A stretch of 64,000 bases of DNA from Siphonodentalium dalli (Eukaryota; Mollusca; Scaphopoda; Gadilida; Siphonodentaliidae), in the NCBI GenBank assembly GCA_032622095.1, contig CP136067.1:98880707-98944706 (forward strand). The letters are read 5' to 3'. The notes under the pieces are model-generated. The model ran no database searches and was not told the DNA's origin. It worked only from the letters and a program-made list of their open reading frames with translations. The position numbers were made by a program, and so were the translations under genes. Positions 8,641-51,100 of this stretch are shown here, in pieces; within the stretch, counting starts at the first letter, position 1; the number at the start of each line of letters is the position of its first letter.

Positions 8641-8900
8641 GATAAGGGTGCCACCCTACCACCCGAATCCTTAATCCCAGTTAACAAGGAGGGTGAATCT
8701 TTCGTACCATTTAACGGGGATGGGCAAATCCTTAATACTGTTTAACCGAGATTTGTGAATCCTGCTTCTCAGTTAAAAGGAGGGGTTAATCCTTAATACC
8801 AGTTAACAGGAAGGGGGATCCTTAATACCAGTTAACAAGGGGGACGAATCTTAATAACAGTTAACAAAAGGTGGCTGAATCCTGCGTACAAGTTGAGATA
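8640..8900. repeat. Minisatellite with TACCAGTTAAC core
   Basis: Six or seven units of about 38 bases with AATCCTTAATACCAGTTAAC, AAGGAGGGG. The core TACCAGTTAAC is the reverse complement of GTTAACTGGTA in the array at 48.9-49.5 kb, so the two arrays may share an origin. Confidence 0.8.
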
Positions 8901-24100: not shown

Positions 24101-27100
24101 AAACAAATAGATTGACTTTGTTCTTATTGTCATTATTAATAACACTAATGTGATTCTTCGTGTCAAAGCCATTGTTATTGTAACAGTGAAATTACTAATA
24201 AAGTGCAATTAGACCAATAATATACCACATAAAATATCCTGAATATCACATTCAGACTTAAATGTTTGAACTTATTACACGATTATAAATGACAAATCAC
24301 TGAAATTTGTTTTTTAACAACAATACTTTCAACAGGCGAAGTTTCAATATTGGAGAGCTATCAGTAATCAATATATACAGTTTATATATTTCTCCATGTT
24401 CTTCTTAGTGGTTATGTTTTTGTTGACATACATTGTTTGTGAACTCAACCAATGCAAGTTTCTTGGATCACTTTACAATTAATTTAGTAGAAATGGTTCA
24501 TACCTTGTTTCTGAGTGTGGACGGATCTACAGGTGCCACAACACGTCTTTCGCACAGCTGACTGGTAGCATGATGATTTAGAGGATTGTACCAACTCGAC
24601 ACATGTTTTGCCATTAAATGCAATACCAACCTGATCACCGAAAACGCAGTCACCTGAAGATGTGAGAGTATGACAGGTTAAGTATGCGATGTCAGCTATC
24701 AGTTAATTAAACATTCAAATTGATGCGTTTTGTATGTAACCGTTATTGGAATGTGGGTGACTGAACAAGTAATACCACTGCCAAGGTAAACGAACACAAC
24801 CTGGCACATTAAAATGACAGAAACCAAGTCGCAGTTATAACCTAGCAGGTTGACCAGAAGGTCTTTAACTTAGAAAAACAGATTTTAACAAAACATAACA
24901 ACGACTGCAAACATATTTGTCATATCGGGTTGCCCACATACAAACATGTACGGATGTTCAGAATAAATGTAAGGTGTCTGCTAGGCATACAAACAACGGA
25001 TGTGTATACTATGGTTAGGGTCCAAATCACGAGCAGATACTTGGTACCTCGAGTTCTTGGCACAATATAGAGGTGGAGATCAATATCCCGGAATGGTTTA
25101 CACGAATTTGGAAAGAAATTTCAAACATACAGGCGAAATGAAGATTTAATAAATCACATGATCATAACATCTAATAAATTCTGTATTTTAAGGATAAAAT
25201 GTCAAACTTAAATATTTGAAATTTAAAGGGCACAGAATGTAAAAACAAAAAATTGCATAAAATGCTAAAATAGATTTAATTTAGGATCAATAGAAAACAG
25301 ATTTACATGAAGACGTTAGAGTATAGCATGATAAGAAAATAACGTCATCTATCAGCTACATAAGCATGTAAATTCATATGTAACTCAGTTATCTTCATTA
25401 TGGGATGTCAGACTCTCAATTATTAACCGAAAACCATACCTAGATAAACATGTATCCTGATGAATCAGCATCAAACCCAAAAAAAATTTCAAACAAAATC
25501 TAGAGTAAATATGTTGAGTGAAAATCCTACTAATAGTCTAAACTGCAAGTCAGAAAAGGATGTGACTCGTTAATCGGACCAAAAAGCATGCCGCAAAACA
25601 AAACATTTCGCGAATTATGTATCAACGCTATTTGTTACATACTATTTATTAACGGTCATCTACATATCTCTTTGTAGCAACACTACAATTAACAACGTTT
25701 ATGTGATACTGGTAGGTTTTTTTTATCGTTTCTTTTTGCACCCTCCAAACACGCATGCACAAGGTGAATATCTGGTGTGGCTCATACTTAAACTATCGTG
25801 AAACATAGATATGTGAACTACTAATACCCAAGTTTTCTACTCCAGTTTGTAATAAATTAACATTATTCTGGGTAAGAAAAGTTCCAATTGAGTGGTCTCT
25901 CTGGATCAAAATTATTGTTTCATACCCATACAAGGAACATATAGGTCTTATTACATATGGTCTCTTTTCCCGGCAACAATCACAAAAAAACGTTATTTTT
26001 ATAAACCCTCTTTCAAGACTATAACTAACTATTTAGATTTTAGGCTTTTCGGTCCAAAACAGCTTGGGATTTTGGTTGATTTAATGCAGTTTTGGACCCG
26101 TTACTCTTCTTTCATTGAGAAGATGCATTTACTTTACAATTATGGAAAAATGTAAAGTGATGATATGATTGTTTAATATATTGTTTACATACATTTTATG
26201 ATAGCCTTGACAAATATCACATATGACATGTATCACGAAAATCATTTATGGAGCCACCATAGCCCCGATCATGGATACCGTATATCAAAGCCTAGACATA
26301 TACTAAACCCATAAATAGCCCCACATAGACTGAAACAGACGACACTCCATATAGCTTACTTCCAAATAAGTGAGGCGCCATGTGGGTTACATATAAAAGT
26401 CACGAAGACAGAGTTGATTTATTTACAATATACTACGATAATCGAATGGTCTCAGGGAGAGTATTGTATTGTGTTATTTAACATCGACTCCATTTTGTAA
26501 AATGAGCAACAGTTTGGGAAATTGTGTTATATGAAACATTTTTATACTCAGCATTGATGAGTATTTCCCTCAGAAAATTCAGATACTAAGTTCAAGAAAT
26601 GGTTATTGAACTTATCTGAAGATTATCACCAATGAATGTGAATCCGTCTTCACTCTTATGATCTGTTGTGGTTTTAACTTTCGTAACAACCCTAAGATAA
26701 ATAGTATACTGCTCCAATATATACTCTTATGACTGATAGCCTGTCTAGAACTTGTTAATGCCTGTTTGCGTGCTTTAGTTAGTGTGCAGGTGCGATCGCG
26801 CGAATGAGTGTTTGTTTGAATGTATGCATGTGTCCGATGAACGTTCTATATTTTATCCAATATTTATAAGAATTACCAATTATTTCTGAACGTAAATCAT
26901 CTGACATTATTTCATTAATAAAACCTTTTAAAAATATTCACTCACCGTCTGCCGAGGGTGCAATCGGGTCGTATGTGCATTGTCCATTAATACACCACTG
27001 AAAAGAATAAGTGTTTGTGACATTATATAAACGGTTATATATACATTGCGCATACACTAGGTAATATATAATATATTTTTATATTGAACATTGAATGATA

Positions 27101-30100
27101 TCTACTCGTATATAAGCACATACCTGAGATAAGGTTTTCATCTCCAGAACTTCTGTTATTACGTTTTAGAATTATAGCTGTGTTATAGTTCATCGTATAT
27201 TCGATATGTTTACTGGTAGATTATCCACTGAATTCAGGATGGTCTGACCATGCAAACTATGAGTATTTTAGTAAATTAAGTTACATCGATACCTCTATAT
27301 TCATGGTTTCCAACAATCAAAAGTCATACGCCCGAGTGATCAGCAGTTATTTACGACTGTTAGTCTTTCCCCCCATCGTCAATTCATGTAGACCTAAACA
27401 TACTAAACCCCAATGTATAATATATTCTCGTCATACATGTAAGATTTCAGAACGTGTCCTCGTGCACTGTTCATATTCATGTATAACTGAGCATACTAAA
27501 TCCCATTAATTAAGTTGATCTAATGACCATTTTAGAGGTGAATATTGACTTTAGCCTTGAAACTTGTTCTTTTTCTATTTTACCCAACAATTGGCCATTG
27601 GCCAATTCGGAGATTGATAGCGTGAAACAATATTTTACGTTTAAACGTTAAAGACCCACTTAATTTTCAAATCCCCAGTTCAAATTATATAGAATAAAAG
27701 CCATGTTATTTACCATTTGAAAGAGGAAGCTACAACACATTGTATTATCAATTTATCCGGTGTAATGAAATGTGAAAAGGTTGCCTTTGTTGAGGTACAG
27801 ACGTGTTTTCTGTGTTAAGTTTCATCTAGACTGTACTGCAAATTCTAATATTTACAATGGGAGGGAAATAACTCTATAGTTTGAATTATATTGCATTCTG
27901 GGAGCGTAACGGTGGTAATGTTTCTATAATTCAGCTATTTTCTATATGGACACCTTCTGAGCCACAGACGTTTCAAATGGTGATGAATAGTATTTAAATC
28001 ATATATTATGTGATAGATTGTTATTAAAACCATATATCAAGGGACTATAAAAAATAATCAGTGACTCGAAAATTAAAATGGCCATTAAATCAAATAAATG
28101 ACTGATAACTTACCTCTTTATTCCCGCATGTTGTCCTGCTTGCTGCTTCAAACTGTGTACAAGTCATTGCAGTGGCCGGATCCCTACAGAACATATGTGT
28201 GCAAACGGTCGACGTTATAGTTGTCGTCACGCCCTGTAAGAAATAAACTATCATATATATTCTGTACTGTCTCCTTTGGGAAAGATTATGAACACAATAT
28301 ATACAACACTATATACAAATACTGTGAACATTAACACTTCCATGACTGGAGCTTCCTCAAATTTTGCGAAAACCCTGCACCAATGCATTATGTTATAAAT
28401 GCGAGTCTACTATAGGGAGCATCGAATATATAGGAGAATGATTTGCCCTAACACCATTACCTTGACCTTGTATGTCGGTGCATTCTCGTATATATGCGAG
28501 GCACCATATGGGAGACTCGCATATATACGAGAATGCATTGACACAGGATATTTAATGCTGCACAGCGCAGCTCCTGTCATGAAAAGGTTAAAACACAAGA
28601 GATGATTAACACGAGCATATAAGTGCCAAAAAGCGGTGGTACTTTGTTTAGAGGATTCATCACCGGTTACTTTGGAACTGATGATATCGGTGGTTGTTTT
28701 GACTGTTTTAACCCTTTACCCAACAGAACGGCCCTGTGCCAATGCATTCTCTTATATATGCGAGTCGACCATAGGTCGCCTCGCATATATAAGAGAATGC
28801 ATTGGCTTAACACATTAAAAATTATAAAATTGTTAAAGAATGTAAGAAAAAATGGTAAAAAGTGTTAAAAAAAGATTTTTTTAGGCCAATGCATTCTCTT
28901 ATATATGCGAGGCGACCTATGGTCGACTCGCATATATAAGAGAATGCATTGGCACAGGGCATAACTGTAACTATCACAATGTGGTCAAGGAGCCGGTTCC
29001 AATGATATCCATATTTGTATGGTTCTATTGAGACAGACCGAAGATATTATAGGCTGTTGAAGCTTTATTTGGCCGGTTTTGGCCGGTTTGTTGGGTAAAG
29101 GGTTAAGACGCTTATACACCTTTCTTAAGACTACGATAACATTGGCCTACATTATCGTTTTCATTCCCATTACAACACACACATAGTTACTGACTAACTT
29201 TCTAAATTAAACCCTTTGGTTATAAATATTATTCGGCCGTTTGCATATGCTCAAAATTAGTTTCTAAATTATCCAGACACAACATCAGGTTATGGTCCTT
29301 TAATTTAATTATTCATTGTGGTAAATTAGTACTTACCCTGCAGTAATATGAACCGGACCCCATGAGCATCACGCACAAGTCATCCGGGGTGTACACCTGG
29401 CCCAGTTTAACTCCATTAACATCTGGTAAGGAGGTGTCTACTTCCCGTCTGGTAAGGCAATAACGAAACTCTGTTGATCTGTCAAGAAATATTTACACTA
29501 TTAACATCTGGTAACGAAGTATCTATGCATTGACACAGGGTTTTCTAAACATTTCAGGAAGCTCCATTCGTGGAAGGGTTGAAACAAATATAGAAGTGGT
29601 ATGCCAGTCTAACATTGGATGTATGGTTGCATAGACTGGTAGATTTCTAAGTTTGTAGATTAATTAGTTTTTATTGTAAACTTTTTTGTAGATTTCGCAC
29701 CCGAAAATTGAAGCGGTTGGCTCGTCAAGCTTATTATATACTTCCTGTCTGGCAAGAACATAATGATACTGTGTCGATCAGCCAAGAAATATTAACACCA
29801 TTATCATCTGGTAACGAGATATCTACTTCCCGTCTGGTAAGGCAATAACGATACTGTGTCAGATATTAACACTATTATAATCTAGTAACGAAGTGTCTAC
29901 TTCCCGTCTGGTAAGGCAAAAACGAAAATATGTCGATCTGTAACGAAATTGTAATTCTAAATATAATAAGCTTGACGAGACAACCGCTTCAACTGTCGGG
30001 TACGAAATAAAACAAAATCTACAAAAGTTTGCAATACAAACTAATTAATCTACGAACTTAGAATAGGCTTCTCCGATCTACCAGTCTATGTAAGCATACG

Positions 30101-33100
30101 TCCAGTGTTAGACTGGCCTACCACTTCTATATTTTATTCAACCGTTCCATGACTGAAGCACTTCGCGCACTTGTCATTGCTATTATCCGTTTTCTAACGC
30201 TACTCTGTGTGCGATGTGAGAATTATGGTCAGCGAACTATCGACCAGCCTATACGGAATACTGTTGTGAACTGTTGTGCACGCTCGTGAAATGCTAGAAG
30301 TTGTCTTGTTTTGTAAGCACTGAAGGCATTTCGGTACATGGTGATTATAGAGTCATAATACTTGAGCCGGCCAATCGAGGAACTTACGATAACAGCTCAT
30401 CAATCTTCCTGATGAAACTATTCACGGAACAGAGGGAGAAGAACCAGGGATTGTAAAGGTTCGCTTCGGTCTTCGTCGCTGGACCCGCCGCCATGATGTA
30501 TCGGTCCGCCCCGGAGCACGTGTTACCTTCCCCGTCATGCATGCCGCTCAGACTGCAAAGAATGGAAAAAGGGACATGAACCAAACATAACAAATACGAC
30601 GATAACGAGTGTAATTAAGAGGTACACGAACCAAACATATAAGACATACGACGAGATCGAGTGTAGTTATGAAGGACGACTAGGATGATGACGACGGCTA
30701 CATGGTGTATCGGACGGTCCACCCGGAACACCAGTTAACTTCTCCTCCATGTGGGGCAAAAACGGGTTGGAAAATCAAACACTGATAGCAATGTTTTAAG
30801 AATTACTACGGAAGGGAAAGAGTCAAGACACTGGCTTCGCCCTATTTGCTGTGAACGATCCATGTACCAGTTGACGTTAAACTTTGTTCAAGTTATCACA
30901 ATTACAGCCTTTTTATTTCTAAAATATATATAAAGCGCCATGACTGGGAAAAACTTTTGGATTTGCCCCTCGATTTTCTGTGCGAATCTGTCGCGCAAAT
31001 AGATATAAACTCCTGCACCAATATTATAATACATTGTTACTGCTAGGGGTTGGTGGAGAAATGGTAACCCTGTAGTCGGTGGGGGAAATCTGTCCATCAA
31101 CAAACTGAATATATATTTAGTACAAGATAAATCACTCAAGTTGTGAATGTCTACAGTAGATACATTAAGGAATCGTAATTGTGTTTTATTTTTTAGCAAT
31201 TGGAATGGTTAATTAATGTAAGGGTGTGGTGTAATTGGAATGGTTAATTAATGTAAGGGTGTGGTGTAAAATTTCAAACACTTGTTGTATGAGGCATGGC
31301 ATTTACAACTGTTGAGAATGTATCCTGGAGTGCTTATTTCTGTGAACATCGACAGGTAATGACGGTGATGACGACGACGGTGATGACGATGATGCTGGCG
31401 GACACGTTGTAATATATATTGTTTTGATGATATTGAATTAGACCACGGACCGAAAGAGCTGCATATTGTTTCAATAGTTTTCATGATTGTGTGTCCACAA
31501 ACACACGTAAGCACATGTGAAATGAACGGCACGCCAACACACAACACTGTTTGTTCGAATATTCAGGTGTGATTTGATCCAGGGGTAAGGCAAACGTGAA
31601 TATACATACGCCGACGTAAACATGAGCTCTATATCTCATCACAAAATAATAACAGTGTTATATAGCGATTAACAAATTACTTGCTCTAACACACTTTTAT
31701 ACATTACAATATCATCACAGTCATTGTGTACAAGCCAATTAATGAACGGGCTGAATCAAACGGGTGTGCTGCTCTAGTTTGATTACAACATGATCTGATA
31801 CTCAAAATTATTACCAGGTGACTGATACTCCTGTAACGCATAAGTGGTACGAAGCCGAAACATGTATGAGCGACCTTGCTCAAGGGTCACAACTTCGCGC
31901 GGGATTTGAAATAGTGAACAATTGCACGCAGCTCAAAGCGCTCAAGCGACTGCTGTGTGATGACTCACAATGCCGTGTGTAAGTGGTCAGAGAACTCCGA
32001 TTCAACAACGATAAAATTCACGTGATCCATTTTGGGCATAACAATCCACAAATAAACTGCCACATTATTGATACAAGCACACATGAAGAAACTCCCATCT
32101 TAATTAGTCACTAGGAGAGAGATCTAGGGGTCATAATTGATGGCAAACTCAAATTCGACGAACACATACATCAAATTTGCAACAAAGCAAGTAAAATCAT
32201 TGGAATGATTTACAGAACCTTCTCCCACTTAGATCCGGGCACATTTAGACAATTATATGTGAGCATGGTACCTCCTGTGCTAGAGTATGGCAATTCCGCA
32301 TGGCATCCTCGACATAAATACCGGAGTATAATTCTCGAAAGGGTTCAAAGGAAAAGAGCTAAACTGGTACCGCAGCTGAAGCAACTTAGTTTTAGAGAAC
32401 GCATGATCGAACTAAACATAATGTCCCTGAAGTATAGACGTTTCCGGGGATACTTAAATGACCACTACAACGCTGATACTCATGAACAATTCCAGAAAAG
32501 TTTGTCCGATAAAACTAGAGGTCACCAATGGAAGTTAAAGGACTATGGGAAATACTTCTTCACACAGAGGATAATAGAAGACTTGAACGCGTTACCAAAC
32601 CACATAGTAGCAAAACCATCTCTGAAGGAATTTAAAATGTTAATAGATTCAGATTTCCACAACAGGCGATATCATATGACGATGCCAATGACAGCTCTAC
32701 CAGCATAACAACATAATTTCAATCCATTATGATCGTGACATTTTTACCAATATATTTTCATTAGTACTGGAACAAAAATTCGAAAGACTTGTTCCATGAT
32801 TATGATGATGATATTGAATAGATCTGAGACGTGCTGCGAACTCATATTGATGTGTGTACAGTCCGACACGCTAACCACTGGACCACGAAGCTCCATCAAA
32901 AATGACTTGTGCCCGTGCGAAGCCGTCTTTATGCCTTGGAACCCCCACCCCCTTGATAATAAGTTCTATTTGAATCACAGTATAACTGGCATGTGTCAGA
33001 GTTCGTGCGATGCCGTCTTTATGCTTTGGAACCCTCACCTGTTAATGAGTTATATCTGACCACGCGTATAGCTGATCTGTGTCCCCAAGTTCGTGTGATG

Positions 33101-36100
33101 CCATCTTTATACTTTGGAACCCTCCCTGTTAATGAGCACTATCTCATCACATGTATAACTGACCTGTGTCCGAGTTCGCGCGATGCCGTCTTTATGCTTT
33201 GGAACCCTCCCTGATAATGAGTTATATCTGACCACATGTATAACTGTCCTGTGTCCAAATTCGTGCGATGCCGTCTTTATTCTTTGCACCCCACCCCCTC
33301 TCGTGTTAATTAGCTCTATCTGAGCACACATATAACTTACCTGTGCCCGAGTTCGTGCGCTGCCGTCTTTATGCTTTGGAACCCTCCTTGCTCTTCTACC
33401 AGTGAGACACTGTTTCCGTCACCTCTACATAACGTATCCAAGTACGCCAGACCTGTTAAACCCAGAGGTTAAATGTAAGTGCATGGTATCGTATCCAAGT
33501 ACGCCAGACCTGTTAAAATCCGATGTTATATTTGGGAGCATGGTATCGTATCCAAATAGGACAGACCTGTTAAAATCAGACGTCAAATGTGAGTACATGA
33601 TAGCGTATCCAAATACGTCAGCCCCGCTAAACCAGAGGTTAAATGTAAGTGCATGGTATCGTATCCAAGTAGGACAGCCCTGTTAAAATCCGATGTTATA
33701 TTTGGGAGCATGGTATCCGATCCAAATAGGGCAGACCTGTTAAAATCAGACGTTAAATTTGAGTGCATGATAGCGTATCCAAATACGTCAGCCCCGCTAA
33801 ACCAGAGGTAAATTGTGAGTGCATGGTATCGTATCCAAGTTAAAATCAGAGGTTAAAGGATCATTAAATCGTGTTCAACGTTTATGACTTCAATTTGTTT
33901 GCGATATATACTGATCCCACACAGGTATGGTTCATGACTATCGTTTTTCTTTCCCCAATACTGCTATAGTTAAGCCATCATATCCCGACCATCGGATCAG
34001 ATCAGCAACATCTCGGCGGCGGTTAGAGTGCTATATTATGTGCCTCCTGCTTATTCTTCCCGAACTTCCCTCCAAATCAATAATAGGTCACTCCAATATT
34101 TGCTCTTCCCCGATTCGCAGGGCTTTAACTATTATGGTTGACGTGGCCACGTTAACATATGGTTAATGCTAACCAGATGACGCAGTATTGACGACCCCAT
34201 TATATACTGTGTACGTTAACATAGTGCTAATATAGATAGTTATACTAACCAGATGACGCAATATTGACGACCCCATTACATACTGTATACGTTAACATAG
34301 GGATAATATAAATTGTTATACTAACCGGATGACGCATCATTGACGACTCCATTATATACTGTATACAAGTCATATCTGAAAAACATACATAAGGAATGTT
34401 AAATGGACTCAATGTATTCCAACTGTTACATGTGAACTAACATAAACGTGAAGAAGGTGAGAACATATATCGATTGTGTTATTATTTCCACTGTCAATAA
34501 TTCTCAAATAAAGAGATAATATGTGATGAAACCAGTATCATTTAAACATCAACTGTTTGAGTATATTGTTGTTTATTATTATATGTGAAGAGCACTCAAA
34601 TATTCAAATAAGAGGATTAAATAATGGATGCCAATATTAGAAAAGCCGAAACACTAAACATTATTCTTAAAAACAAATACATTCTAATTATAGGATATTC
34701 CTCGAGCTGTCGGGTATTCGGAAACAATAAGTCAACGAGACGAAGCCGATTTGTTTATTTGGCCGAATACCCGACAGAGATGGGAATATCTGTCTTAAAA
34801 CATACCTTCTCAAATATACATGTCTTACAGATGTAATTTTACTCAATTGCTGACCATAACACTGGAACGGCCATGGCGACTAATGTTGCATTTGGGACAT
34901 GAGCACGGGCGGTGTTTTTATCATAATATCATGATATGGTCGTCTGTTAAACAACATTAGCAATATAATAGAATGATATGATCGACTGCTGAACAACCTT
35001 ACTCTGAGAATAGCATAATGTGGTCATCTGCTGAACAAACTTTTACGCTGATAATACCACGTGTTCGTCTGTTGAACAATCTTACCACACTAATAACATG
35101 ATGCGGTCGTCTGCTGAACAAACTTACCATGAGAATAGCATGATGTGGTCGCCTGTTAAAAAGACTTACTCTGTGAATAGCATGATGTGGTCGTCTGTTG
35201 AACAACCGTACCATGAGAATAGCATGATGTGGTCGTCTGTTGAACAACCGTACCATGAGAATAGCATGATGTGGTCGTCTGTTGAACAACCGTATCATAA
35301 TAGCATTATGTGGTCATCTGATTAACGACCTTTTACTCTGATAATAGCATGGTGTGGTCGTTTTTTTTAACAACCTTACTCTGATAATAGCATGATGTGG
35401 TCGTATGCTGAACCTCACCCTCATAATAGCTGTCAGAGTAAGGTTGTTCAACAAACGACCCCATTATGCTATTATCAGTTTAAGGTTGTTCAGCAGACGA
35501 CCACATCGTGCTATTTAATAGCACGATGTGGTCGTCTGCTGAACAACCTTAAACTGATAATAGCATGATGGGGTCGTTTGTTGAACAACATTACTCTGAG
35601 AATAGCATGACGTGGTCATCTGTTGAACAACCATACCATGAGAATACCATCATGTGGTCGTCTGCTGAACAGCATTACCCTGATAGCAGCATTGTGTGGT
35701 CGTCTGCTGAACAGCATTACACTGCTTATAGCATGATGTGGTCGTCTTTTTACCAACCTTACCATGATAATAGCAGTATGTGGTCGTCTGCTGACATCCT
35801 TACGCTGATAATAGCATGATGCGGCCATCTGTTAAACTACCTTAGTCTGATAATATCATTATATGGTCGTCTGTTGAACAAGCTTACCCTGAGAATAGCA
35901 TGATGTGGTCGTTTGCTGGAATATTATTCATCTTTCGAATATAATTTCTGAACTCTTCGAGCACGGTTTCTGCGTTCACCATTTTGCCGGAGACTCTGCG
36001 TTCTGACCACGGAGAATTCGACGAACTCTGTGAATAAAGTAGTCCGAGCTGTGCATTTATCATCACCCTCTCTATATTAAATAGACCTATGGTCGTTCAA

Positions 36101-39100
36101 CTTATTATATGATAATTTCCTCAGGGAAATGAGTATTTAGTGTAGGAGGGTTAATTCAGCATATTATATCTTTCTGAGATACAATGTGGAATTCATATAA
36201 TACACACACGATTGAATATCGAAAGATACATAACCGGGCTTCACGATTATATAGCGATAGTTGTACAATCGTGAGCACGTGCGTCACGTGTTGTTAATCT
36301 GGCTTCACGTTTAGATAGATTAGATTAAATGGTTGTTAATGTTCGCGATATGTTTGTGAATCTAATCCCAAATGTATTTATACATTGTTACAATTACATC
36401 AGGAAATTAAATATAAAATGTGCATAATTCGAATTAACGCTCCCAAAATACTATTTCTTACTAACACTTCGGGGGTAAAAAAAAATATTTGATTCGAGTT
36501 GAGAAACCCACCCATCAATCCTCAGAGTGATCAGATATCGATTTTTGAAGTTTGTTATTTCTCGAGATGTGCACTTATTTGTGGGCCAACCCGACGGTCT
36601 CGGACAAAATAGCGGATGAAGATGAATCTATAAAAATAATACGGCCATATTTCGTTGAACAAAATGTTGATAAATATTATGTTTTGGGAACTTTTAGCTG
36701 ACAGTGGTTAGCATTATTATGTTGCAATTAATCGATTCTGGTAACTAAAGCGTATTTTAAAGAAATGTTTTTGTTGTAACCTGATGATATGTGGACCGTC
36801 GGATCGGATTGAGTACCTTTAAAATTATTCCTTAAGTAAATAGCATACGTTATTCAATTATAATCTTATCTCGTGGATATGCAGCTATTTTAATTGTACT
36901 GGGTACTTCGACATACATGTAGATGCGTACTTACCTCTGATATGATAACTCCCGCCAAGTTGATGTTAATTTTGAATGGAAGGTTAGCAATCGTGTTATA
37001 TCGATGATTCATCTGCGAAGAAATAAATACATTGTATATGTCGGGTATCACTTCCCGAACTATCTACCCATATGAAGGTTCGGGGACATAAGCTGATAAT
37101 TTTCGTCGCCATTCAAGACAGATATGCAGGGGATGGAACAGGGATGGAACAGGGAGAACAAGTTTCCGGAGGTGGTGTCGTTTGTATAAGTGAATAATAG
37201 TCCTGCTTGCAGAAGATACCATCGATGGAAAATAGCGGTCAATATGTGTTTTGTTATATTTTCAAAATTAGCAGCAAACTCCATGGAGCGCCCTCTCCGT
37301 TGTTACTGTGATATATCACTGTCACAAGGATGGTACTTTGCGGACCGATACATCTATTTGTACGTAACGTCGGAACTATATTTAATCACCTATTGTCTTA
37401 TTTTGACCACAACAAGTTTGCAATAATCGTAATTCTTTCGGTATTGATAAGAACAATATGAACTGAGCCAGACAGACAATTTTATTCCTAAAACATAAGA
37501 ACTAAGATCGTGTCAGAAATCGTCACCAAATTGTCTTGTGGCAGTGTTATTTCAGCGGGGCGATGGGAGATAAATCTGCCTGGAGTTTGAATTAGCACGT
37601 AGATAAATAGTTCGAAGACTATAGCCTGTGTGATATTTTGCAAAACTCTGGCCTCACGCGCGATAGTCGTGACAATTCTGGCATCGCGCCAAATTCTGGA
37701 ATTCGCCCCACATTGTGACGTCACATGTGGGAAATAGTCGACGACTATAGCCTGTGCGATAGTTAGCTATACGGGTGATGGTTAAAACCACTTACTGACA
37801 AGTGATAACGCGTCATCGATTCAAAAGACAAGGCATATAATAAGCGTTATTATTTTCAAGTCGAATATCACAGCTGATACAAGCCAGTTTTAACCATATA
37901 TACGCAGGGGAGACTCGGGCAAAGCACTTAATGTTATCTAGTATATGCAACCGACAATCAGAAATATTAGCACTGCCAGTTTCTAACCATAACGGCGTAA
38001 CATTTGACACAGGATGCATTCAGATCAGTCAACTGGTTTGGTTGCTATATATTGATTTTTAATTTTGATCCGCTTTGTCCGGCCGTCGTACAAAGCGGGT
38101 CATAGCAAAGATCTTTAACCAATGTTGTCAAATAGTTATCTCACAACAAATTTTGCGAATAATAGTTTACCGTTATATTGAAACAGTTCTAGATTGCTAA
38201 AGCTCCCGTCTATAACTGATTGTCGGCTGTGTATATGGGGGGCACTGTATGGGAGATACCCCGAGCGCAACATGACCATAGTATTCCCGAACCCATGTAG
38301 GGGGCCATATGCAAACAGATATATTACTGATTGTCGTCTCTCCGTGTCTATATGAGGGGCACTTTATGTGAGATACTTACCCCGAGCGCAACATGGGCAG
38401 AGTATGGAGCCCCACACATATAGAAGGATCTATTACCGGATTTTGTATTTTCGTGTCGGTGAGGGGCTCTCAGTGGAGGTGGGCCTACTTACCCCGAGCC
38501 CAGCAAGAGTATAGTATTTTCGATTTCGAGCCCCCGACACATGTAGACGGATATATTACTGAGTATCATCTGCTCGTGTCTGTGAGGGGCGCGTTATAGG
38601 AGATACTTACCCCGAACGCAACATGAGCATAGTATTCCCGAATTCTGTTAATAGCATCGTTCCTTTTAGATAACGAACCGATAAAGTTTGAGCTTGTATA
38701 ATATCTGAAATATAACCGGTATACTGTTACTATAACTTAAATCAGTAATTTGATCATATAATAGTAACACCCTTATACCGTATAAGATCATATAAGATGT
38801 ATTGAAAATTACATTATCACATGGCAATATATCCTGTTATGCAACGAACGTTGCATATCACAATTAATAAAATGTGTCTATTTAATGGAATAAGGGTAGG
38901 ATCATGCAATAAATAGAGGATCTCCAACGAGTTATATTGAGATGTAAGATTTTACGAAACGAGTTTGATAAATTTGATTCACAACGAGTCGTAGACGAGC
39001 TGTGAATCAAATTTATCAAACGAGTTTCATAAAACAGAGTCGTATAATAGCGACGTATACTTTATCGCAAAGGGTTAACCAGATGCGTGAATTAAAACCA

Positions 39101-42100
39101 AAATCATGCACAAACACAAACATGTGTGGTAGCGAGATCTTTCACTGGCATAGATCGCTACACCATAATGCACAAGAAAACTAAGATGCATGCATCAGGT
39201 CGGCCGTGAACTATCTACCATAGAATTGTTGTAGCTATCGATTATACATTTTGAAACACCTGTCTGTATGTATGTATGTGTGTATGCGTGAATGCATGTG
39301 TGTATGTGTTATAGACTCTAACACTGCTCGAATTTGGTATTTAACGTGTCAACTTGACCTCGCTCATAGGCATGTTTCTGGACCTTGACCGATCCGACTA
39401 AAAATTTGTGTGTAGGACTACTTCGATCCCGGGGGCAATATGGACGGGTCCAATTTCACGTGGGACCATGTTCTCGAACGTGCTGATATAGGCATGTTTC
39501 TGGACCAATTGAACAATAGTTTGGCCAGACGCTGTATATACTGGGTACTGTCCAGATGGAGGCGATCACAAAAAAAATCCCTAACTAGCCCGAACGAAGT
39601 CGAGTACATCAGCTAGTTTAATATATATTTTGGACATTTGTCTGTCTGTTTGTGTGTTAGCTATGGCCGGGAAAACTGCCGGACAGATTTGACGAAATTT
39701 GATACCTAGGGGAAATTATTTCCAGGGAGTATTTTGGACGGGTCAAATCTTGATCCCGACCTGACTTTGACATTCAAAAAGATAAATTCAAGGTCAAATC
39801 TGGTAAAACGGAAGTATTTCAACGAAATTTGATACCTACTGTTACTTTTGTCCCAGGAGTGTTTCGGGTGGGTCAAATCATGACCCTGACCTGATCTTGA
39901 CATTCAAAATTGTCAATTCAAGGTCAAATCGGGTATAAAGCCGGGCGGATTTCGACGGGTACTTTTGTCGTGACTTTTGTCCGGGGAGTGTTTTGGACGG
40001 GTCAAATCGTGACCCCGACATGACCTTCACCTTTAAAATAGTCAATTCAAGGTTAAATCGCGCATTTCTCCGAAAATCAGACGAAGTGGGGTCCACGAGC
40101 TACTATTATATATTTCTAGATTTAGTTACAAACTAAATACCTGTATATTGTACAAAGAAATGTTTGACAAATATATCTGTATCAATATTACCATACGGGT
40201 CATTAAAATAGATACGACGAAACAAATTTTGAAGGGTGCATGTATCAGGTAAATTTTTATATTTCAAATGATGACAGGAATGCAGAAAGTTGAAGTACCT
40301 ACGTAATACTGGCTATCCGCATGAAGAGATATACATGTATATAAAAACCAGATGAGGGATATGTCTGTGCAGTTGCTAAACAATTCAGTCATGCAAAAGA
40401 GGATCAAAGAGTAAGATACCAAATTGCTGCCTGTGGTAATGTTTTTTAACGAAATTCGGGAAAATTAGATTACTCTCACCCTGGTTATCCAGAAGATAAT
40501 TGTGGAATCTGATGACGATCGGACAAGGGTGTCGTCTGTAGGATCAACCAAATTATTTAGCCATAAAAATAGTAAAATTGAAGATCACCGCTGGCAGTGA
40601 TGTCTTCACAAGGACAGTTTGAGAACAAAATATGGCTCACATCTAGCGGTGACCCAAAATATCCACATAAGAAAAAGTTCTCCAATAAAAGCTGGCTGCA
40701 GGGTGCGCCAATTGATTCAAATTCGAAATTTAGCAGGGTGTACTGCTTGTGGCCATGTTTTCCCCGCAAATTTGATAGACTGATGGACAAAACCACTGAA
40801 TCCGTTGAATCAATATACATGTATACATGGATTAATTTATATGCATTGTTATACACAGTACTGGTATATAAAGGTACTGAAAATAACTATATTACTAGTA
40901 TACACAAAATAAACCATATATCATGGCTATGGGTTCTAATATCCGAACATGACAGCTGAGAACTTGGTGTGAATTAAAGAGTGGTGGTTTCTCAAGCATA
41001 TCTAACCCTCCACGTTAGAAACATGCCATTAAATGTCATAAGTATAATCTAGCTTGAGGACAGAAGTGATCCATAAAACCCCCCTTAATTCAACCAGGTC
41101 CTCGCGCGATGTATGATCGATCACATGATGATCTAGGGGGATTAGAATTGATGTATAAAAACAGCACTGCATGTAAATATAAAATAAAATAGTGCTACAT
41201 CTTATTACAGATTATTGCCATATATAATCAGTGATTATACAGACAGTCTGACAAAATAAAGTTTCAGTGACACTCTATCCGAAGAGGGGAATAATTTCAT
41301 CTGTTACAGTCAATGGAGCAATTATGAATCTGGAAAGGTGAAATTTCTAAGTAATACTAGATATCGACATGACGCGATAAAATATAACGTAAATGCAATA
41401 TGGCCGCTGGCGACCATTTTTTCCTATGAAATTAAAAAAATATTTGATAGCTCTCATCTGATAGATCAATATCAAGATAAATATGAAGTTTGGTGATGAT
41501 CGGATGAGTGAAGTGGACTGTGGTCTGTGCTAAACGGTTTAGTAATGCTTAAAAAGATTCTTACCTTAATATTTTTATGTTCACTTTATAAACTTCACTG
41601 AGTCATCTTTGTCATGTATTGAGTTTGATATCTTTTGTTAACAGTTTATAAATCATGTATGTCTCATGTTTGTTATTTTAATTTATGTGTTTATTATCAT
41701 TAAATAAAGTTGCATTCCTTAAAAAGATTCTTATCTCAATGTTTTTATGTTCACTTTATAAAGTCCACTGAGTTATCTTTGTCATGTATTGAATTTGATA
41801 TCTTTTGTTAACAGTTTATAAATTATGTATGTCTCGTGTTCGTTATTATATTATATACACTTTATAGTGTGTTTTCAGAACGAAAAAAAATTGAATAAAA
41901 TCAACAAATTTGTAAATTTAAAAACAATTCAAACGTTGTTGTATTCCATGTCCCAGCCCGGACATATACACCAAATTTCAATAATATTCATTGAGAAACA
42001 ACGGACCAAACGCTATATAACACCCGTATACATCTTTTATTCCGAATCGGACTCGGGTACATGTTATAGTAGGTACCGAATTGACACACGTCGACTGGGC

Positions 42101-45100
42101 GAGTTGGCCATGGGGCGATTAGGCCGATTCCGGCACATTCTATAATTTACCGTATGTATCCGTTTACGCGTAGTTTACTTTAGAAAGTTCCGCAATTAAT
42201 ACCGTAAATAGAGCGATTATCAAGTTGCTGTACATTAAAAACGACAAATTCACATGCTCGTTCAAGCGCAGTAGTCTATTTTCCCCATGTTAAAGGACAT
42301 CCACAAATACTAAATAACGCTAACCTACTGCCGAATGTTTGACACGACAACTGTTAACATATTTGGGCTGAATTCATCTAACGCGGTATTATTCCTCAAA
42401 ATAAACAACAAAACCATCGTTACTTGGAAATGTAGTTTGGGCTAACATTTACATAAATCCTCCAGATCAATTATCCGACACACACGTCAGATGAAAAAGT
42501 CACATGAAGTAACCGGCCAAATTGGCCGAAATGACATTTCAGACAAGTAAGCTACACACTGATGTTGCGAAACATAATTATAAAGTACAAGTATTTTGGC
42601 AGTAATGCTATGTAGTTTGCGAATGAGAATAATTCGCAGAGCAGAATCGTGGGAACTATATTTTTTGCCGGAAGGGATACGCGAAGTGGTTGTGTTAACT
42701 TTCTTTCCAATAAATTGATCGGCGAAGATGGTCGCTTATTGTTGACAACCCTCCGTCCCTCCCCGTTTTTTTTTTTTTTTTTTTTTTTTTTTCGTTTTGG
42801 GAATACACATTCGATTGATGTCTCCACCTTTTGGCCTACATCTAAATGCGGTTATTGTGCGTCAAAAGATTATCACCCACATGTTTGTATTTGTTACTAC
42901 TACATTTATTGTATCGGCTTCCTGTGAATAACTATGTTTTTTTTCTAAACAGGTAGCTATTAAGGCATTCCAGTTGTTGTCTTTCACTTTAACCTAGGAC
43001 TAATATATTAGTCCCAGCTTTAACCCTGTGGGATAAAATCTTATATCCCAAAATAACAAGTTGAAGATCTTGTATATAACATGATAAAAGTAGAGCTTTA
43101 AATGGCTTTTTAACAAATAAAACTCTTTAAAAGAAGCTGAAAAATGCATGAAAAATGCTTACATGTACAGATTTGGCTGAGACGCTTCACAACCGTATAC
43201 GACAGTATTGTGCGCTCTCGCTGGAAACGAAAAATATAGTCCCCCAATTTGCCTCTTTGTTTTGTGCCTATTTTCGTAAGCGCAACGAAGTTGGACAATA
43301 AGTTAACTTTGATGAACAAAGCAATCAGTTTGCAACATCTGGTGCTGGTGTCAAGCGCGGCTTTTCGAATTAGTTTTAATCCGCGCGCTAAGTTTGTTGG
43401 CGCGATGTCAAGTATGTCGGGAAGCACGCGCCTATTCGTCGCTAGTTAAATATATGGAAATATGTAATGTTTTTTAATGATATAATAGAGGGTTCTTGTG
43501 ATATATGTATATAATCAATGCATGTTTGTCCCAGTTCCTCAAATGATGTAAAAGTTGATGGGTTCAGAAAGACTCGTGTTGATAACGGCGAACGACATAC
43601 TTAACTATGTAACATGGTGGTTAATAGTCATACCGAAATAAGTCAGCACACATATTACGACATCGCCACGTGGAACGTGTGACGCCATCCATCAATGCAA
43701 AATAAGTTCCATCATAACTTAGAAACAAATTCAAAAACAAACAGAACACACATAAAAAATAACAATGGACATTGTCCCATTGAGTTTGATAATCAACCTC
43801 TATCTGGTTCAACTTACTTATAATAAATACTGTATTCTGCATAAACTAACAGATCAACATAATAGTTTGGAGTTGTCGCCCTTTTCGATCGACCCGTCCG
43901 CTCCTCGTATTGTTCTTTTCTGTGTTTATAATGGAGACTATCATGTATGTTATCTACAAGAGAAATTGGACTTGAACACCAAAATTATAATTGTTTTTAA
44001 TTTTGAAATTAATCTAAATTCTGTGTTTTTGTTTTTTTTACCGACAACAAAGAATAACATGTGGGGAAACACCATAATATATACACGAGCAGACGACATT
44101 CATTGTCAAAATACAGGACAAACGACACAATGCATATACAAAAGACGACACAATACATACACGAGCAGACGACATGCATTATCAAAATACAGGACAAACG
44201 ACACAACACATAGACAAGCAGGCGACACAATGCATACCCGAGCAGACGATATTCACGATCTAACTCCAGGACAAACGACACAATACATCCACAAGAATAC
44301 GCCACAAAACATACACGAGCAGACGACATTCATGGTCTAACTCCAGGGCAAACGACACAATACATACACAAGCAGACGACACAATACATACACGAGCAGA
44401 CGACATTCATGATCTACTAGTAACTCCAAGACAAAAGACACAATACATACACAAGCAGACGACACAATACATACACGAGCAGACGACATTCATTATCTAA
44501 ATCCAGGACAAACAACACAATACATACACAAGCTTACGACATTCATGATCTAATTCCGGAAAAAATGACACAATACACACACAAACCGGCGACATGATGT
44601 GATTTAAATCTACAATGTAACTACACAATACATACACACTTTCCAATTGCAGATGACATTCATGATCTAAATTCATGATAAACAACAGAATACGTACACA
44701 AGCAGACGCCGTTCGTGATATAAATCCAGGACAGACACGATCAGACGACATATCATGATCTACGACCAATACACACGACAAAATACATGCATACTTTCTA
44801 TTAGCAGACGATTCATGATCTAAATCCAGGATAAACGACACAATACATACACGAGCAGACGATATTCATGATCTAAATCCAGGATAAACGTCACAATACA
44901 TAGACGTCAGATGACACTGATGATCCAAGACAAACGACACAATACATACACGATCAGACACGATCAGACACGACACAATACATACACACATTCCAATAGC
45001 AGAGGACATGCATGATCTAAATCCAGGATAAACACAATACATTCATGATCTGACAACATACTAGTACATGATATACGTCCAATACGCACGACACAATACA

Positions 45101-48100
45101 TACACACTTTCCAGATGACATCCATGATCTATATCCAGGACAAATAGCTGCGAAAAAAATAGAATCTTCAATGAAATATGTTTGATTTGTTTTCTCGCAG
45201 ACAGTCATGATCCCAGATGGTGGACTGAGCACATACTCTAGTTGTGTGCATATTCTATATAATGCGGTGTGGTTTTTTTTAATATTTCTGTCAAACTGTC
45301 TGTCGACCTACATGAAAAAATGGTTGATTTTTGTATCCACTTTTTCACATAATTCGAACATATCTCTCATAGTTTGAGGTTAAACACGTGTTGTTATAAT
45401 ACTATAGCATATATTGGTTATAAATTATCAAGAATTTTCCCTTCGAATTGATTGTTTGGAATTGTACGAATTCGTGGTATACTCGTTAGGGGGGGGGGGG
45501 GTCATGTGATCAATTTTGAATGGGGATTTCCATGCAAATCTCCGGAGCAAAAGTTATGTATGAAGCCTCTGTCCGGGAAGCAAAGCAGGCATATCATTTA
45601 ACTGACAGGTGCGCTAGGTAAATTATAAAAATTTGCATTAAATATATTTTTGAGAATTTGTTTCTGGAATTACATCACATGACCTACATTTGCTCCGCAG
45701 ATTTGCATGGATATCCCCACTCAAAATTTCAACAAATTCTTTCTTCAGTGTAGTCCTTCTGTATAAAATTATTTCTTTTCAAATATAGATTAGTCGTATC
45801 ATCATACCATGCATGCATGGTATGCGTGGCGTATAATTGATGTCCAAAACTAAGCAATATGTTGGTTCAGTGCAAACGACACATCCAAAAATAAATAAAA
45901 CAACGCAACCAATGGCTTATCCGAGCTTAACATTGTTACTGGAGACATAAGATAAGATAATTTCACGTTCCTGAGGTTTTGGAATGCTTTCATCGTACGG
46001 TTAGCCAAAATGATCTCCTGTAATAATAATAATGCAATAATATTAGTGATTGTGTTATTTACCTTTATTTGATAATTAATAGTTAAAGTGATTAAATTGG
46101 GCTGGTTTGGGTGTCTGTGGGCTCTTAATTGCTTTCATTGGCTTCTGTGCCATGCACCTACTACAATCCAGTAGTCCAGAGACTCCCAAACCCCCGATAG
46201 CATATGGTATGTCAGAAAAATAACAAATATGACACTACCGACACGCACTGCAGTGGCACTCCGGGCCATCCCAGGACATAAGCAAGGATTTTAAATGATT
46301 GAAATTTGATTGCATCCTGATATGTTACGGATAGATAGATAGATAGGTATGTTTCATCTTCCAACCAATGTATATGGTACGAAGAACACAGGCCGTTCCA
46401 GAAGGTGGGGCTGCATATTTGAAGGACCTTTTACCACATGTCACAATGTTTAATCTGGTTACCTATAAAATTGGATACCTAAAGCTATATCTGTTGTTCT
46501 TCCAACAAACTAAATCCTGTAAGCACATAGGTGACAACTTATTTAAAATTCAAAATGTTTCAATAGCCATAGTCCTTAGTCTTCGCACTTTGAGGGATGA
46601 CACCTTAGCTTTGTGGAGATCTTCTTGTGATGAACTGTAGTCATTGTATATAAAGCTTAATGTTCGAAATTTTATATTTTCAAGTTTCTATAGTTACTTT
46701 CCTCACTGCAAAAATGCCACACCAAAGGATAAAAATTAGATAAAATAAATGTATGGAAAATTGTAATTTTGGTCAGATGGTTCAAGTTGTATTCGTGTAG
46801 TAATATTTAAGGATGCGCAATCCGATTAAGCGCCCCTCATTTACTATTTATTTTGATTGGGGGGGGCGTAAAAAATATTTTATTCGAGTCGAGGATATAA
46901 CTGAAGATTACTTCTGATAATTGAAGCGGCATTTCTAAAAAATGTTGTTGACGTTGTTGTTGTTGTTGTTGTTATTGTTGGAATCTGATTATATGGGGAC
47001 CATCGAATCGGATTGAGTACATTTAAACCGACAAGGCTTATACGAACTTTGCACCGTTTCTGCAGACATGTAGTGCTGTTTAAATCGCCGTGCTTGTTAC
47101 AGTCGCATTTATTCATTACTCTGGAAATGTAACAACTTATCTACATGAGAATCCTAAAGCTCATCGGTTGGGGCAAGTATTATATTCCATACCTGGTAAT
47201 ATATAATCCTTTTCTGCAATGGGACTGTTTTTAACTTGTTTGGCTTTGAGTTGAGTAACTGGTTGGTTCTCGTGAAGCAACACATCCCTTTTTGATCGCC
47301 GCCCATCGCCTAAATCTTCCTGCACAATGTACTCCCGACCATTGTGAACAAATCTACCATTCTGGAAAGAGACGACGATACATGTAGCTAATATATAAGC
47401 AATTATGGTTAACTGATCTGAATAGTGTACGGGTTTCCTGATCGAGTGAGATGCGGATTGTTTTTGTTACGATGCAGTGCATCTCACCAGAAGAAAATAC
47501 GTATGCTATACTCAGAACAGTTAAAGACATATTATGGACTAATTCGGGTGCGTTAAACTGATAAGTTAGTACTCAGGCCAACCTGGGGAATGTAGCATTC
47601 TACTAACTTCGCCGAAAATTTCAAAGAAATCGACCATACCAATCCATAGAAATCATCGTCTGAACTACACTCAATTGTAAATATTTACATCTCGATTCGG
47701 GACGCAACTATCGACGATAAACACACAAAAATGATTTTGGTCATTGCATTTAAATAATATATCAGAATGACGGTGTGTGTTGTCAATTTGGATTAATTTT
47801 AATAAAAATAACTACTTTGAGCAAGATTATTCTCCACTTCTATTTAAGCACCCATATCGGAGTGTTTCACATCACTTTAACTCTTGTGTTTATTATATTT
47901 ACATACAAATTTGTTACGACCCAGACCATAATGAAATACACGGTTAGACCGTTAGACCTAACAAGTTCTTTAAGCTACATCACCAGCCAAAATAACGTGC
48001 AAGGATACCGAATGACGGACAATACGATGTCATGACACAGTGCTGAGAGTAGTAAAACATTTTCACACCGACCATTCGAAAACGAGCATCTGTGTAGCTA

Positions 48101-51100
48101 ACTGCGACGATACAACCGCGCATCTTCTTGTTTTATGTTGCAATATGTGCTACGAAATCGACAGAAATAGTGTTTCAATGTATTTATCATATGAGTAGAA
48201 TAACACGTTCGGTCTTCTGGTCGGGAGTGGGGATTCAATTTACATGTACATTTTAACGTAAAAATATAATAAAGAACTTAATGTGTGGTATTTTCTTCGA
48301 TGTCCAAACTAAACGTAATATAAAATTAGCACCTGACAAGTTCCCGTCGACGAATACACTAAGCGCGCTATTTTCGCGCCAAATATCGCAAAGATATTGC
48401 AAGTGGAAACGCTTATAAGCGCGCCGCTTGCGATATTATTGCAAAATTTTGCGCTTAGTATCGCAATATTTCGCGCTTAGTATTGCGATATCGCGCGCTT
48501 AATATTGTGACATCTTGCGCTCAAAATTGTGACACTTAAAGCAAATTATTGCTTCTTCTATATTGTTTGGCAGATATAGAGACAATATTTTATATTTGTA
48601 TATAATTATAGTTGTATATGCTATATGTGTGCTATATGTACACTATATGCACAGTATTTATCTAATATATTTATAACACTATAGGGTCTGTATGAAATTT
48701 TGTCGCGCTCAATATTGCGACAATACGCGCTTAATGTCGCAATATTCTGCGCTCAATATCGCAATAATAAGTGCGACATATGTTTAGGTATTGCGCTATA
48801 ATCGCGGCTTTTTCGAAATTAAGCGCGCTCAATATCGCAATAAAGGCGCATCTCAATATACCACTTCTTCTGACTGGTACTGTATTCCATAGTTTATTTA
48901 GCTGCAGCAAAACGTTTACGGATGATTCACAACTCCCTGTGTGTTAACTGGTATTCAGGATTCACCACTCTCTGTTAACTGGTATTCGGGATTCGCTACT
49001 CTCTGTTAACTGGTATTCGGGATTCGCTACTCTCTGTTAACTGCTATTCGGGATTCGCTACTCTCTGTTAACTGGTATTCGCTACTCTCTGTTAACTGGT
49101 ATTCGCTACTCTCTGTTAACTGATATTCGCTATTCTCTGTTAACTGGTATTCGGGATTCGCTATATACTCTCTGTTAACTGGTATTCGGGATTCACCACT
49201 CTCTGTTAGCTGGTATTCGGGATTCGCTACTCTCTGTTAACTGGTATTCGGGATTCGCTACTCTCTGTTAACTGGTATTCGCTACTCTCTGTTAACTGGT
49301 ATTCGCTACTCTCTGTTAACTGGTATTCGCTATTCTCTGTTAACTGGTATTCGGGATTCGCTATATACTCTCTGTTAACTGGTATTCGGGATTCACCACT
49401 CTCTGTTAACTGGTATTTGGGATTCACCACTCTCTGTTAACTGGTATTCGGGATTCGCTACTCTCTGTTAACTGGTATTTAGGATTCAGGTGGTAGGGGT
49501 CATACAGGCAATATTTACCAGTGTTTTAATAGTCTTTGTGGACAGCGAACATCTCACAGTGAAGCTTGCTTTGGTGGCGACATCCTCAAATATTGAGTAT
49601 GGCTGGAAAGAAGAGAATGGTATATTATATAGTGAAATACAATCATACTATGTCCTTATATATTGGATAAATTATGGCTGGAAAGAACAGAATGGTATAT
49701 TATATTGTTAATTACAGTCATATATATACTCAGTCCTTATATTTTGAATATGGCTGGGAAGAAGAGAATGGTATAAAATATTGTGAAATACAGTCATATA
49801 ACATGAATTGGCGATATGTAACTTCAATGAAGGACGTTCAATTCAATTTATTTCTTGATCATTAATATATTGATATCAGAGTAACGAGAGAATAAGAAAT
49901 ATATGACACCAAAATATATGCACATATATGTAACAATACATTGCAAACGAGGAATATCATTATAAGTGTTCGATTTGTATCAGTTTGTGGTCAGGTGATG
50001 ATTTTAGGTACAATGGGCGATTCGGGTACAATAGAACCGTACTATTTCAGAAATGGATGCTGATTTGCTTGCGTTCCATAGAATATGGATGCAAGTTTGT
50101 CTGAAATTTTGTGTCAACCTTCGAAGTTGGTATATGCGACATTTTGGGTCTTCAACTAGTGGAATATGATATCCACGGGCGTAGCCATGGTAGAGATTAG
50201 ATGCATGATCTACTTCGCCAGTAACTCTTGAACATGCGGCTATATGGGAGGTCACGAAGGGTCGAACACATATAGTCAACAATGTAATTGCATGAGGGAT
50301 TTAAAGCAGATAGGTCAATATATCAATTACCTCAATGTCGATGTCCTCTCTCACAACGTCGTGAATATTTGGTGTGTATTCTTTCACAATGTACACAGGC
50401 GCATGCGCGGCGAGGCCTGTTTTCCTGGTGAGATTGATGAATACATCCTGGTTGTCGACTCTAAACGACACCCTCAGAAAACCACTGTCTTTACAAACTA
50501 TCACGTGATCAGCGTGATGGAGTCTGTCGAAATTTATTATATATTCTGAAAAGATGAAAATGCTGAATTAATTATCCATCCATCATATGACGATGCTATC
50601 TATGTGTACATAGAAAAATTACACAGACAATATATAAAGTTACTTATTTATGATTTATTATTATGAATAAAAATGTTAAAAATAAATTAAGTCGTAATTT
50701 TAAGTGCACAATTGAAGTCCCCCCCCCCCCCACCCGAACCAAACAAATATTCAGTCATTTCGTAAAATGACTTACCACTAATTCCAGTCATTTCATGAAA
50801 TGACTAACCCCCACAGTCATTCCAAGAAATGACTGAAAATTTTAGTAATGTCACGAAAATGACTGGTTTCGCAATCTGACTGTAATATATATACACTAGC
50901 ATGTTCCATTAACTCGGACTTTGCCAACAGATGCGCACACAGACACAATATAACAATCATGGCATAATTGTATTCATTATGTGTCAATTTATTGAGCTCA
51001 GTCTATAATATTGTGCCGCTTTCGACTCATTACATTGCTTAAAAGTGCTTGATAAATGCATGAATTGTGTTGTCGTTATAGAATGTGGAAAAAAACATTG

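What the first reader, a model, noticed from the sequence alone, without database searches (positions are those of the whole stretch)
29337..49800. Splice junctions of protease exons have been amplified into intronic minisatellites
Seven arrays beside six exons (3, 5, 6, 8, 9 and 11) are made of copies of the neighbouring exon edge plus its splice site: three at acceptors and four at donors. One such case could be chance; this many within one gene is not. They cluster in the prodomain, catalytic and first cysteine-rich exons, and I saw none beside the ShKT-like exons. Established background: tandem duplication of segments bearing AG/GT can create new introns. Inference: this locus has a process that repeatedly duplicates exon-intron boundaries, leaving rows of decoy splice sites that might drive alternative splicing or exon turnover.
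Basis: partly seen in the sequence, partly recalled or inferred. Interest (0 to 1): 0.93.

Follow-up and report, generated by a model that had tools for sequence, protein, structure and literature searches.

The report
Splice-junction minisatellites in a mollusc-like protease
In a mollusc-like protease gene, seven exon edges together with their splice sites have been copied into rows of decaying repeats in the neighbouring introns, much like the 'mirage' repeats described in lancelet genes.

Summary
A 15-exon model on the minus strand (M12B protease with ADAMTS cysteine-rich domain; all GT-AG; 37% identical over 96% to a Gigantopelta protein) was tested at 30 splice junctions. Seven (acceptors of X2, X9, X11; donors of X5, X7, X8, X9) have 33 intronic copies spanning the site; 21 of the other 23 are at chance level and two marginal. 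The exonic parts of the seven units match nothing else in the window.

Boundary enrichment holds if repeat units are placed at random (7 of 16 loci, 0.69 expected) or array ends inside exons are counted (7 against 1.74, P 0.002). It fails if arrays are shifted as blocks and overlap is counted (P 0.13, 0.06).

The copies look neutral: splice dinucleotides are kept no better than neighbouring pairs, exonic changes ignore codon position, and all 31 testable decoy sites bring an in-frame stop. Clustering by domain is not significant.

This fits the 'mirages' of amphioxus genes; boundary minisatellites are also reported in human duplicated genes. New here: an apparently molluscan host, seven in one gene, both ends of one exon, inverted copies.

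The parts
50331..50545 (-). exon X1 (propeptide region); first exon of the model, earlier exons not sought
49519..49602 (-). exon X2
49583..49805 (-). X2 acceptor array: anchor plus 2 intronic copies, about 75 bp unit, exon part about 20 nt; AG intact in 2 of 2
47193..47361 (-). exon X3, no array
43818..43953 (-). exon X4 (RSKR motif, start of catalytic domain), no array of its own edge
38611..38704 (-). exon X5
38223..38646 (-). X5 donor array: anchor plus 3 copies, about 115 bp unit, exon part up to 35 nt; GT aligned intact in 2 of 3; part of the intronic half resembles sequence at 13724, 23664 and 44845
36935..37012 (-). exon X6, no array
35888..36027 (-). exon X7
34923..35919 (-). X7 donor array: 42 bp unit, 13 site-spanning copies in the gene's orientation plus inverted copies in an 83-nt, 98% palindrome at 35433-35599
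34326..34375 (-). exon X8
34149..34367 (-). X8 donor array: 76 bp unit, 2 copies besides the anchor, exon part up to 41 of 50 nt; GT intact in 2 of 2
33341..33452 (-). exon X9 (AAHELGH zinc site)
33429..33857 (-). X9 acceptor array: 57 bp unit, 6 site-spanning copies, 170 bp higher-order repeat; AG intact in 4 of 6
32914..33391 (-). X9 donor array: about 85 bp unit, 4 site-spanning copies, exon part up to 50 nt; GT intact in 1 of 4
30388..30552 (-). exon X10; degenerate partial copy of its 5' part at 30701-30751, without the site
29337..29448 (-). exon X11
29404..29949 (-). X11 acceptor array: 3 site-spanning copies (AG intact in 3 of 3) plus a partial one; copies at 29739-29949 lie between inverted arms 29561-29739 and 29961-30159
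28114..28233 (-). exon X12 (within ADAMTS_CR_2 match), no array
26946..26997 (-). exon X13, no array
24504..24653 (-). exon X14 (cysteine-rich), marginal acceptor match only
21842..22144 (-). exon X15 (cysteine-rich), no array

Best explanation
These are mirage-type minisatellites. At seven junctions a short segment straddling the exon edge was duplicated in tandem (inferred: slippage or template switching during replication). The extra copies landed on the intron side, so one intact exon edge and splice site stayed in place. The intronic copies then multiplied and mutated like any minisatellite, without a role in splicing. Shown: copies of exon edge plus splice site, on the intron side; no detectable constraint on splice dinucleotides or codons; higher-order and inverted copies inside arrays. 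Inferred: the duplication mechanism, neutrality in the animal, and that the site next to the exon body is the one used. This reading and the boundary-directed rival below do not exclude each other.
For: Site-spanning copies at 7 of 30 junctions, 21 of the rest at chance level. Exonic parts of the units match nothing else in the window; outside matches are limited to the intronic half of the X5 unit. Segregating changes in the exonic part: 64, codon positions 19/22/23, 18 synonymous (28%) against 26% expected at random, p = 0.67. Dinucleotides intact in 24 of 31 copies against 69.8% of control adjacent pairs, p = 0.24. All 31 testable decoy sites would add an in-frame stop. In 4 of 7 arrays (X5, X7 and X9 donors, X9 acceptor) exon parts of copies differ more from one another than from the anchor. 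A 170-bp higher-order repeat in the X9 acceptor array, 92% matches against 78% for the 57-bp unit. Same anatomy in amphioxus mirages (passages of PMC3087553 and PMC3902484).
Against: No expression data, so silent decoys are not shown. 9 of 31 copies score at least as high as their own authentic site and 18 of 31 at least as high as the gene's weakest (counted from printed scores; site frequencies recalled), so some could be used. X2 and X8 copies share changes that the exon lacks and X11 is about even; 10 exonic differences in all are fixed between exon and copies, 5 synonymous, as if some arrays had one early founder. Neutral slippage alone does not explain an excess at junctions.
Confidence: 0.72

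Rival explanations
1. A mutational process aimed at exon-intron boundaries (for example breaks or template switches at nucleosome edges, R-loops, or the ends of homology between paralogous exons) makes such arrays far more often than elsewhere in introns.
For: Unit null: 7 of 16 repeat loci hold a junction against 0.69 expected, maximum 5 in 20,000 placements. Array ends inside exons: 7 against 1.74, P 0.0023 over 3030 shifts, maximum 8. Both ends of X9 affected. Boundary arrays recur in several amphioxus genes.
Against: Overlap of whole arrays with junctions or exons is not significant (P 0.13 and 0.06 for X1-X11; 0.28 and 0.23 for X1-X15), because a third of X1-X11 lies in local repeats. The 16 loci and some unit lengths were set by hand. 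One gene, picked because it was striking. Junction arrays may stay recognisable longer since the exon anchor changes slowly.
Confidence: 0.35
2. The arrays are kept as decoy or alternative splice sites that tune splicing of the protease.
For: 24 of 31 copies keep AG or GT; 9 of 31 score at or above their own authentic site. In human duplicated genes, repeats at exon-intron boundaries are reported to go with alternative splicing (abstract and passages of PMC2812944).
Against: No excess conservation of the dinucleotides (p = 0.24), no codon signal, in-frame stop in 31 of 31 extensions. In amphioxus, RT-PCR is reported as suggesting no interference with regular splicing (passage of PMC3087553).
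Confidence: 0.08
3. The arrays are traces of intron gain by tandem duplication of AG/GT-bearing exon segments (Rogers-type).
For: Duplicated segments bear AG or GT, as that model needs; proposed for amphioxus globins and for human boundary repeats.
Against: In all six introns concerned (728-2788 bp) the copies lie on the anchor's side and the opposite splice site is not one of them.
Confidence: 0.05
4. Assembly or sequencing artefact.
For: An 83-nt palindrome with a 1-nt spacer in the X7 array is of a kind that artefacts can make.
Against: Mean divergence between copies is 3-23% by array and part, and 94-99% inverted pairs occur elsewhere in the window too.
Confidence: 0.04

Closest known systems
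Amphioxus 'mirage' minisatellites (Adh3, globins BflGb6 and BflGb9; passages of PMC3087553; original paper, doi 10.1093/nar/gkf386, not held)
   Same: [quoted passage not shown] many but not all units keep AG/GT; units of 10-160 bp reported there, about 42-115 bp here; homogenisation within clusters.
   Different: Host looks like a mollusc, seven junctions in one gene, both ends of one exon, inverted copies; no splicing or polymorphism data here.
Tandem repeats at exons 3 and 4 of lancelet PGBD5 (passages of PMC3902484)
   Same: Imperfect 60 and 108 bp repeats that include splice sites, two in one gene.
   Different: Cephalochordate; fewer arrays.
Variable internal tandem repeats at exon-intron boundaries of human genes in segmental duplications (abstract and passages of PMC2812944)
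   Same: Minisatellite units at exon-intron boundaries.
   Different: Repeats variable between recent paralogues, about half of all such repeats in coding exons, boundary cases said to form novel introns; here exons stay single-copy and the copies lie in long existing introns.
Intron gain by tandem genomic duplication (potato RdRp gene, PMC4974935, listing and start of abstract seen; Rogers model as cited in PMC3087553)
   Same: Duplication of a segment bearing a splice signal.
   Different: Here no new intron is seen; copies lie inside an existing intron.

Membership tests
Mirage minisatellites | Tandem repeat units spanning an exon-intron boundary | tested here: met
   33 site-spanning copies at 7 of 30 junctions
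Mirage minisatellites | Both 5' and 3' exon boundaries can be affected | tested here: met
   3 acceptors, 4 donors, both ends of X9
Mirage minisatellites | Many but not all units keep AG/GT | tested here: met
   24 of 31 copies that cover the dinucleotide, of 36 found
Mirage minisatellites | Regular splicing not disturbed | not testable with these tools
   no RNA data
Mirage minisatellites | Length instability, somatic polymorphism | not testable with these tools
   one sequence only
Mirage minisatellites | Host group in which the name was coined: cephalochordates (an occurrence, not a structural trait) | tested here: not met
   34 of 35 named relatives of the protein are molluscs, none a lancelet; the species itself is not identified
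Intron gain by tandem duplication | One of the duplicated AG/GT signals serves as the opposite splice site of the intron | tested here: not met
   copies lie only on the anchor's side of the six introns
Dispersed (for example transposon-borne) minisatellite | Same unit at unrelated places | tested here: not met
   0 of 7 exonic parts match elsewhere in the window at E 0.01; three outside matches, all in the intronic half of the X5 unit; genome not searched

The most novel reading that the evidence does not exclude
A boundary-directed duplication process acts in a molluscan genome as it does in cephalochordates, so exon-intron edges are a recurrent birthplace of minisatellites across animals and a standing supply of spare splice sites.
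Probability: 0.3. Interest if true: 0.7.

Novelty: new member of a known kind. Interest (0 to 1): 0.47.

Why it matters
If it holds beyond this gene, mirage minisatellites are not a lancelet peculiarity. They would tie minisatellite birth to gene structure, complicate gene prediction with rows of credible false splice sites, and give a testable source for intron and exon-edge turnover. Seven arrays in one gene make it a good locus for measuring how the splicing machinery ignores decoys.

Tried and rejected
Overlap of whole array intervals with junctions, by circular shift: not significant; reported as evidence against. First junction test was faulty: 15 nt of the query's own intron were left in the target, giving spurious scores of 30 at many junctions; replaced. 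Domain clustering: P 0.084. Decline of identity with distance from the exon: Spearman 0.21, p = 0.29, n = 28 of 36 copies, those with 40 or more aligned sites. The 44-45 kb array near the X4 acceptor and the 31-bp array after the X2 donor: no likeness to the adjoining exon edges on the gene's strand; the latter is dispersed. Reverse-transcriptase reading frame to identify the species: of 61 hits one carries an organism name, Patella caerulea, 48% over 36%. Inverted repeats as a mark of the mechanism: 15 inverted pairs of 30 nt or more within 130 nt in the window, 10 of them 94-99% complementary, several nested, so weak evidence. Papers: 11 search requests, 10 answered; four papers seen as passages only; PMC2206037 says nothing of boundary repeats in the passages seen.
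Full report
What is there. The finding lies in a gene on the minus strand. Eleven exons (X1 50545-50331 to X11 29448-29337) join into one open frame with GT-AG at each intron, and four more (X12-X15, to 21842) continue it. The product has reprolysin M12B matches (best E 2.6e-10), an AAHELGH zinc site and a match to ADAMTS cysteine-rich domain 2 (E 1.9e-8). The closest named protein is from Gigantopelta aegis, 37% identical over 96% of the 659-residue model, E 2.1e-134. Of 38 hits there 35 are named: 34 molluscs, one Macrostomum, no lancelet. In one search, 17 of 19 hits are named, all 17 molluscs. That these genera are molluscs is general knowledge. I infer a mollusc host; the species is unknown.

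How sure the exon edges are. Among alignments to 30 homologues, the array-bearing junctions are crossed without a gap within 4 residues as follows: X1/X2 6 of 17, X5/X6 28 of 28, X7/X8 26 of 29, X8/X9 15 of 29, X9/X10 29 of 30, X10/X11 3 of 30. So X5, X7 and X9 donors are well backed by homology; the X2 and X11 acceptors rest mostly on frame and splice signals.

Check of the observation. For each of 30 junctions I searched up to 2 kb of the adjoining intron, without the junction's own sequence, for local matches. Seven have copies that span the splice site: X2 acceptor 2, X5 donor 3, X7 donor 13, X8 donor 2, X9 acceptor 6, X9 donor 4, X11 acceptor 3; 33 in all, with top scores 63-108 against null maxima of 23-29. 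Of the remaining 23, 21 are at null level and two (X10 and X14 acceptors) marginal. Copies hold up to 20-50 nt of exon plus adjoining intron. In a search of the whole window the exonic part of no unit matches elsewhere; three outside matches fall in the intronic half of the X5 unit.

More than chance? A 60-mer scan found local direct repeats at 17.9% of window positions at a threshold that one simulated window never reached. Between X1 and X11 it gave 18 intervals covering a third of the span; I merged and split them by hand into 16 loci, with some unit lengths set by eye. Three nulls. (a) Random placement of the units: 7 of 16 hold a junction against 0.69 expected, maximum 5 in 20,000; with arrays of three or more copies only, 7 of 11 against 0.47; with the X9 pair merged, 6 of 15 against 0.63. 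(b) Shifting the arrays as blocks and counting loci with exactly one end in an exon: 7 against 1.74, maximum 8, P 0.0023 over 3030 shifts. (c) Shifting as blocks and counting junctions or exons overlapped: 10 against 6.84 and 7 against 4.35, P 0.13 and 0.06; over X1-X15, P 0.28 and 0.23. I hold (a) and (b) to be the apt tests, because an array born inside an intron does not gain an exon edge in its unit; but (c) shows how repeat-rich the gene is, and the window was chosen for being striking. The lack of arrays at X12-X15 (0 of 8) has P 0.084.

What the copies are like. A longer query found 36 copies, of which 31 cover the splice dinucleotide. It is intact in 24 of 31 (77%); adjacent pairs within 20 nt are kept in 69.8% (n = 1118); p = 0.24. 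In the exonic part 64 segregating changes fall 19/22/23 on the three codon positions and 18 are synonymous (28%, random 26%, p = 0.67). Ten differences fixed between exon and copies are 5 synonymous and 5 not. In four of seven arrays (X5, X7, both X9) the exon parts of copies differ more from one another than from the anchor; X11 is about equal, X2 and X8 the other way. By a simple site score with recalled frequencies, 9 of 31 copies equal or beat their own authentic site and 18 of 31 equal or beat the gene's weakest, but reading from the authentic exon to any of the 31 meets an in-frame stop. Identity does not fall with distance from the exon. The X9 acceptor array has a clear 170-bp higher-order repeat (92% against 78% for the single unit); a 177-bp one in the X9 donor array is barely better than its unit (80% against 78%). 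The X7 array holds inverted copies in an 83-nt, 98% palindrome, and part of the X11 array sits between inverted arms; palindromes of this kind occur elsewhere in the window too.

How it most likely works. A short segment straddling an exon edge is duplicated by slippage or template switching (inferred). If the new copy lies on the intron side, the authentic edge and site stay where they were and the change is tolerated; the spare copies then expand, homogenise and decay (suggested by their pattern). I find no mark of selection on the decoys. Why junctions should be favoured is open: survival of tolerated events explains why such arrays are allowed, not why they are in excess; slow change of the exon anchor may also keep old junction arrays visible for longer.

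What is known. In amphioxus, minisatellite-like tandem repeats spanning exon-intron boundaries are called mirages: Adh3 and globin genes BflGb6 and BflGb9, with like repeats in PGBD5 (passages of PMC3087553 and PMC3902484). The former says that many but not all units carry AG/GT, that regular splicing seems undisturbed, that clusters vary in length, and proposes intron gain from them. The original Adh paper is not held. In human genes within segmental duplications, variable minisatellites at exon-intron boundaries are reported, with novel introns and alternative splicing (abstract and passages of PMC2812944). In ten answered searches of an open-licence library I noticed no report in a mollusc; most listed papers were seen only as listings. 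The three structural traits of mirages that I could test are met. So this is a new member of a known kind, in an apparently new phylum for it and at high density. Whether it is a trait of this genome or of this gene could not be tested, as the own-genome search did not complete (ten tries).

Noticed in passing
48942-49488; 8664-8866; 9103; 52205: A 31-bp minisatellite (GAATACCAGTTAAC type) just downstream of X2 has relatives elsewhere in the window; it is dispersed and not exon-derived.
   Followed up: partly
14979-15047, 15074-15142, 23506-23574, 23794-23862, 28738-28806, 28885-28953; diverged copy 28473-28543: A dispersed near-palindrome with 33-nt arms (GCCAATGCATTCTC...) occurs six times, in pairs, plus one diverged copy; MITE-like or a hairpin element.
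   Followed up: no
about 12379-11283 and about 18131-17930: Two candidate terminal cysteine-rich exons on the minus strand, each ending in a hydrophobic tail; the first has long threonine runs. Possible alternative ends of the protease or a second gene.
   Followed up: no
19687-20266: A 288-bp unit duplicated in tandem with 100% matches, so a very recent event or an assembly duplicate.
   Followed up: no
29561-29739 and 29961-30159: Inverted arms of about 180-200 bp (86-93% complementary by piece, 80% overall) enclose copies of the X11 acceptor unit; no other match in the window.
   Followed up: partly
44040-45170: A large array of 24-77 bp units about 120 bp upstream of the X4 acceptor, with no likeness to the X4 edge on the gene's strand; an opposite-strand match of score 31 to the X4 acceptor in that intron was not followed up.
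   Followed up: partly
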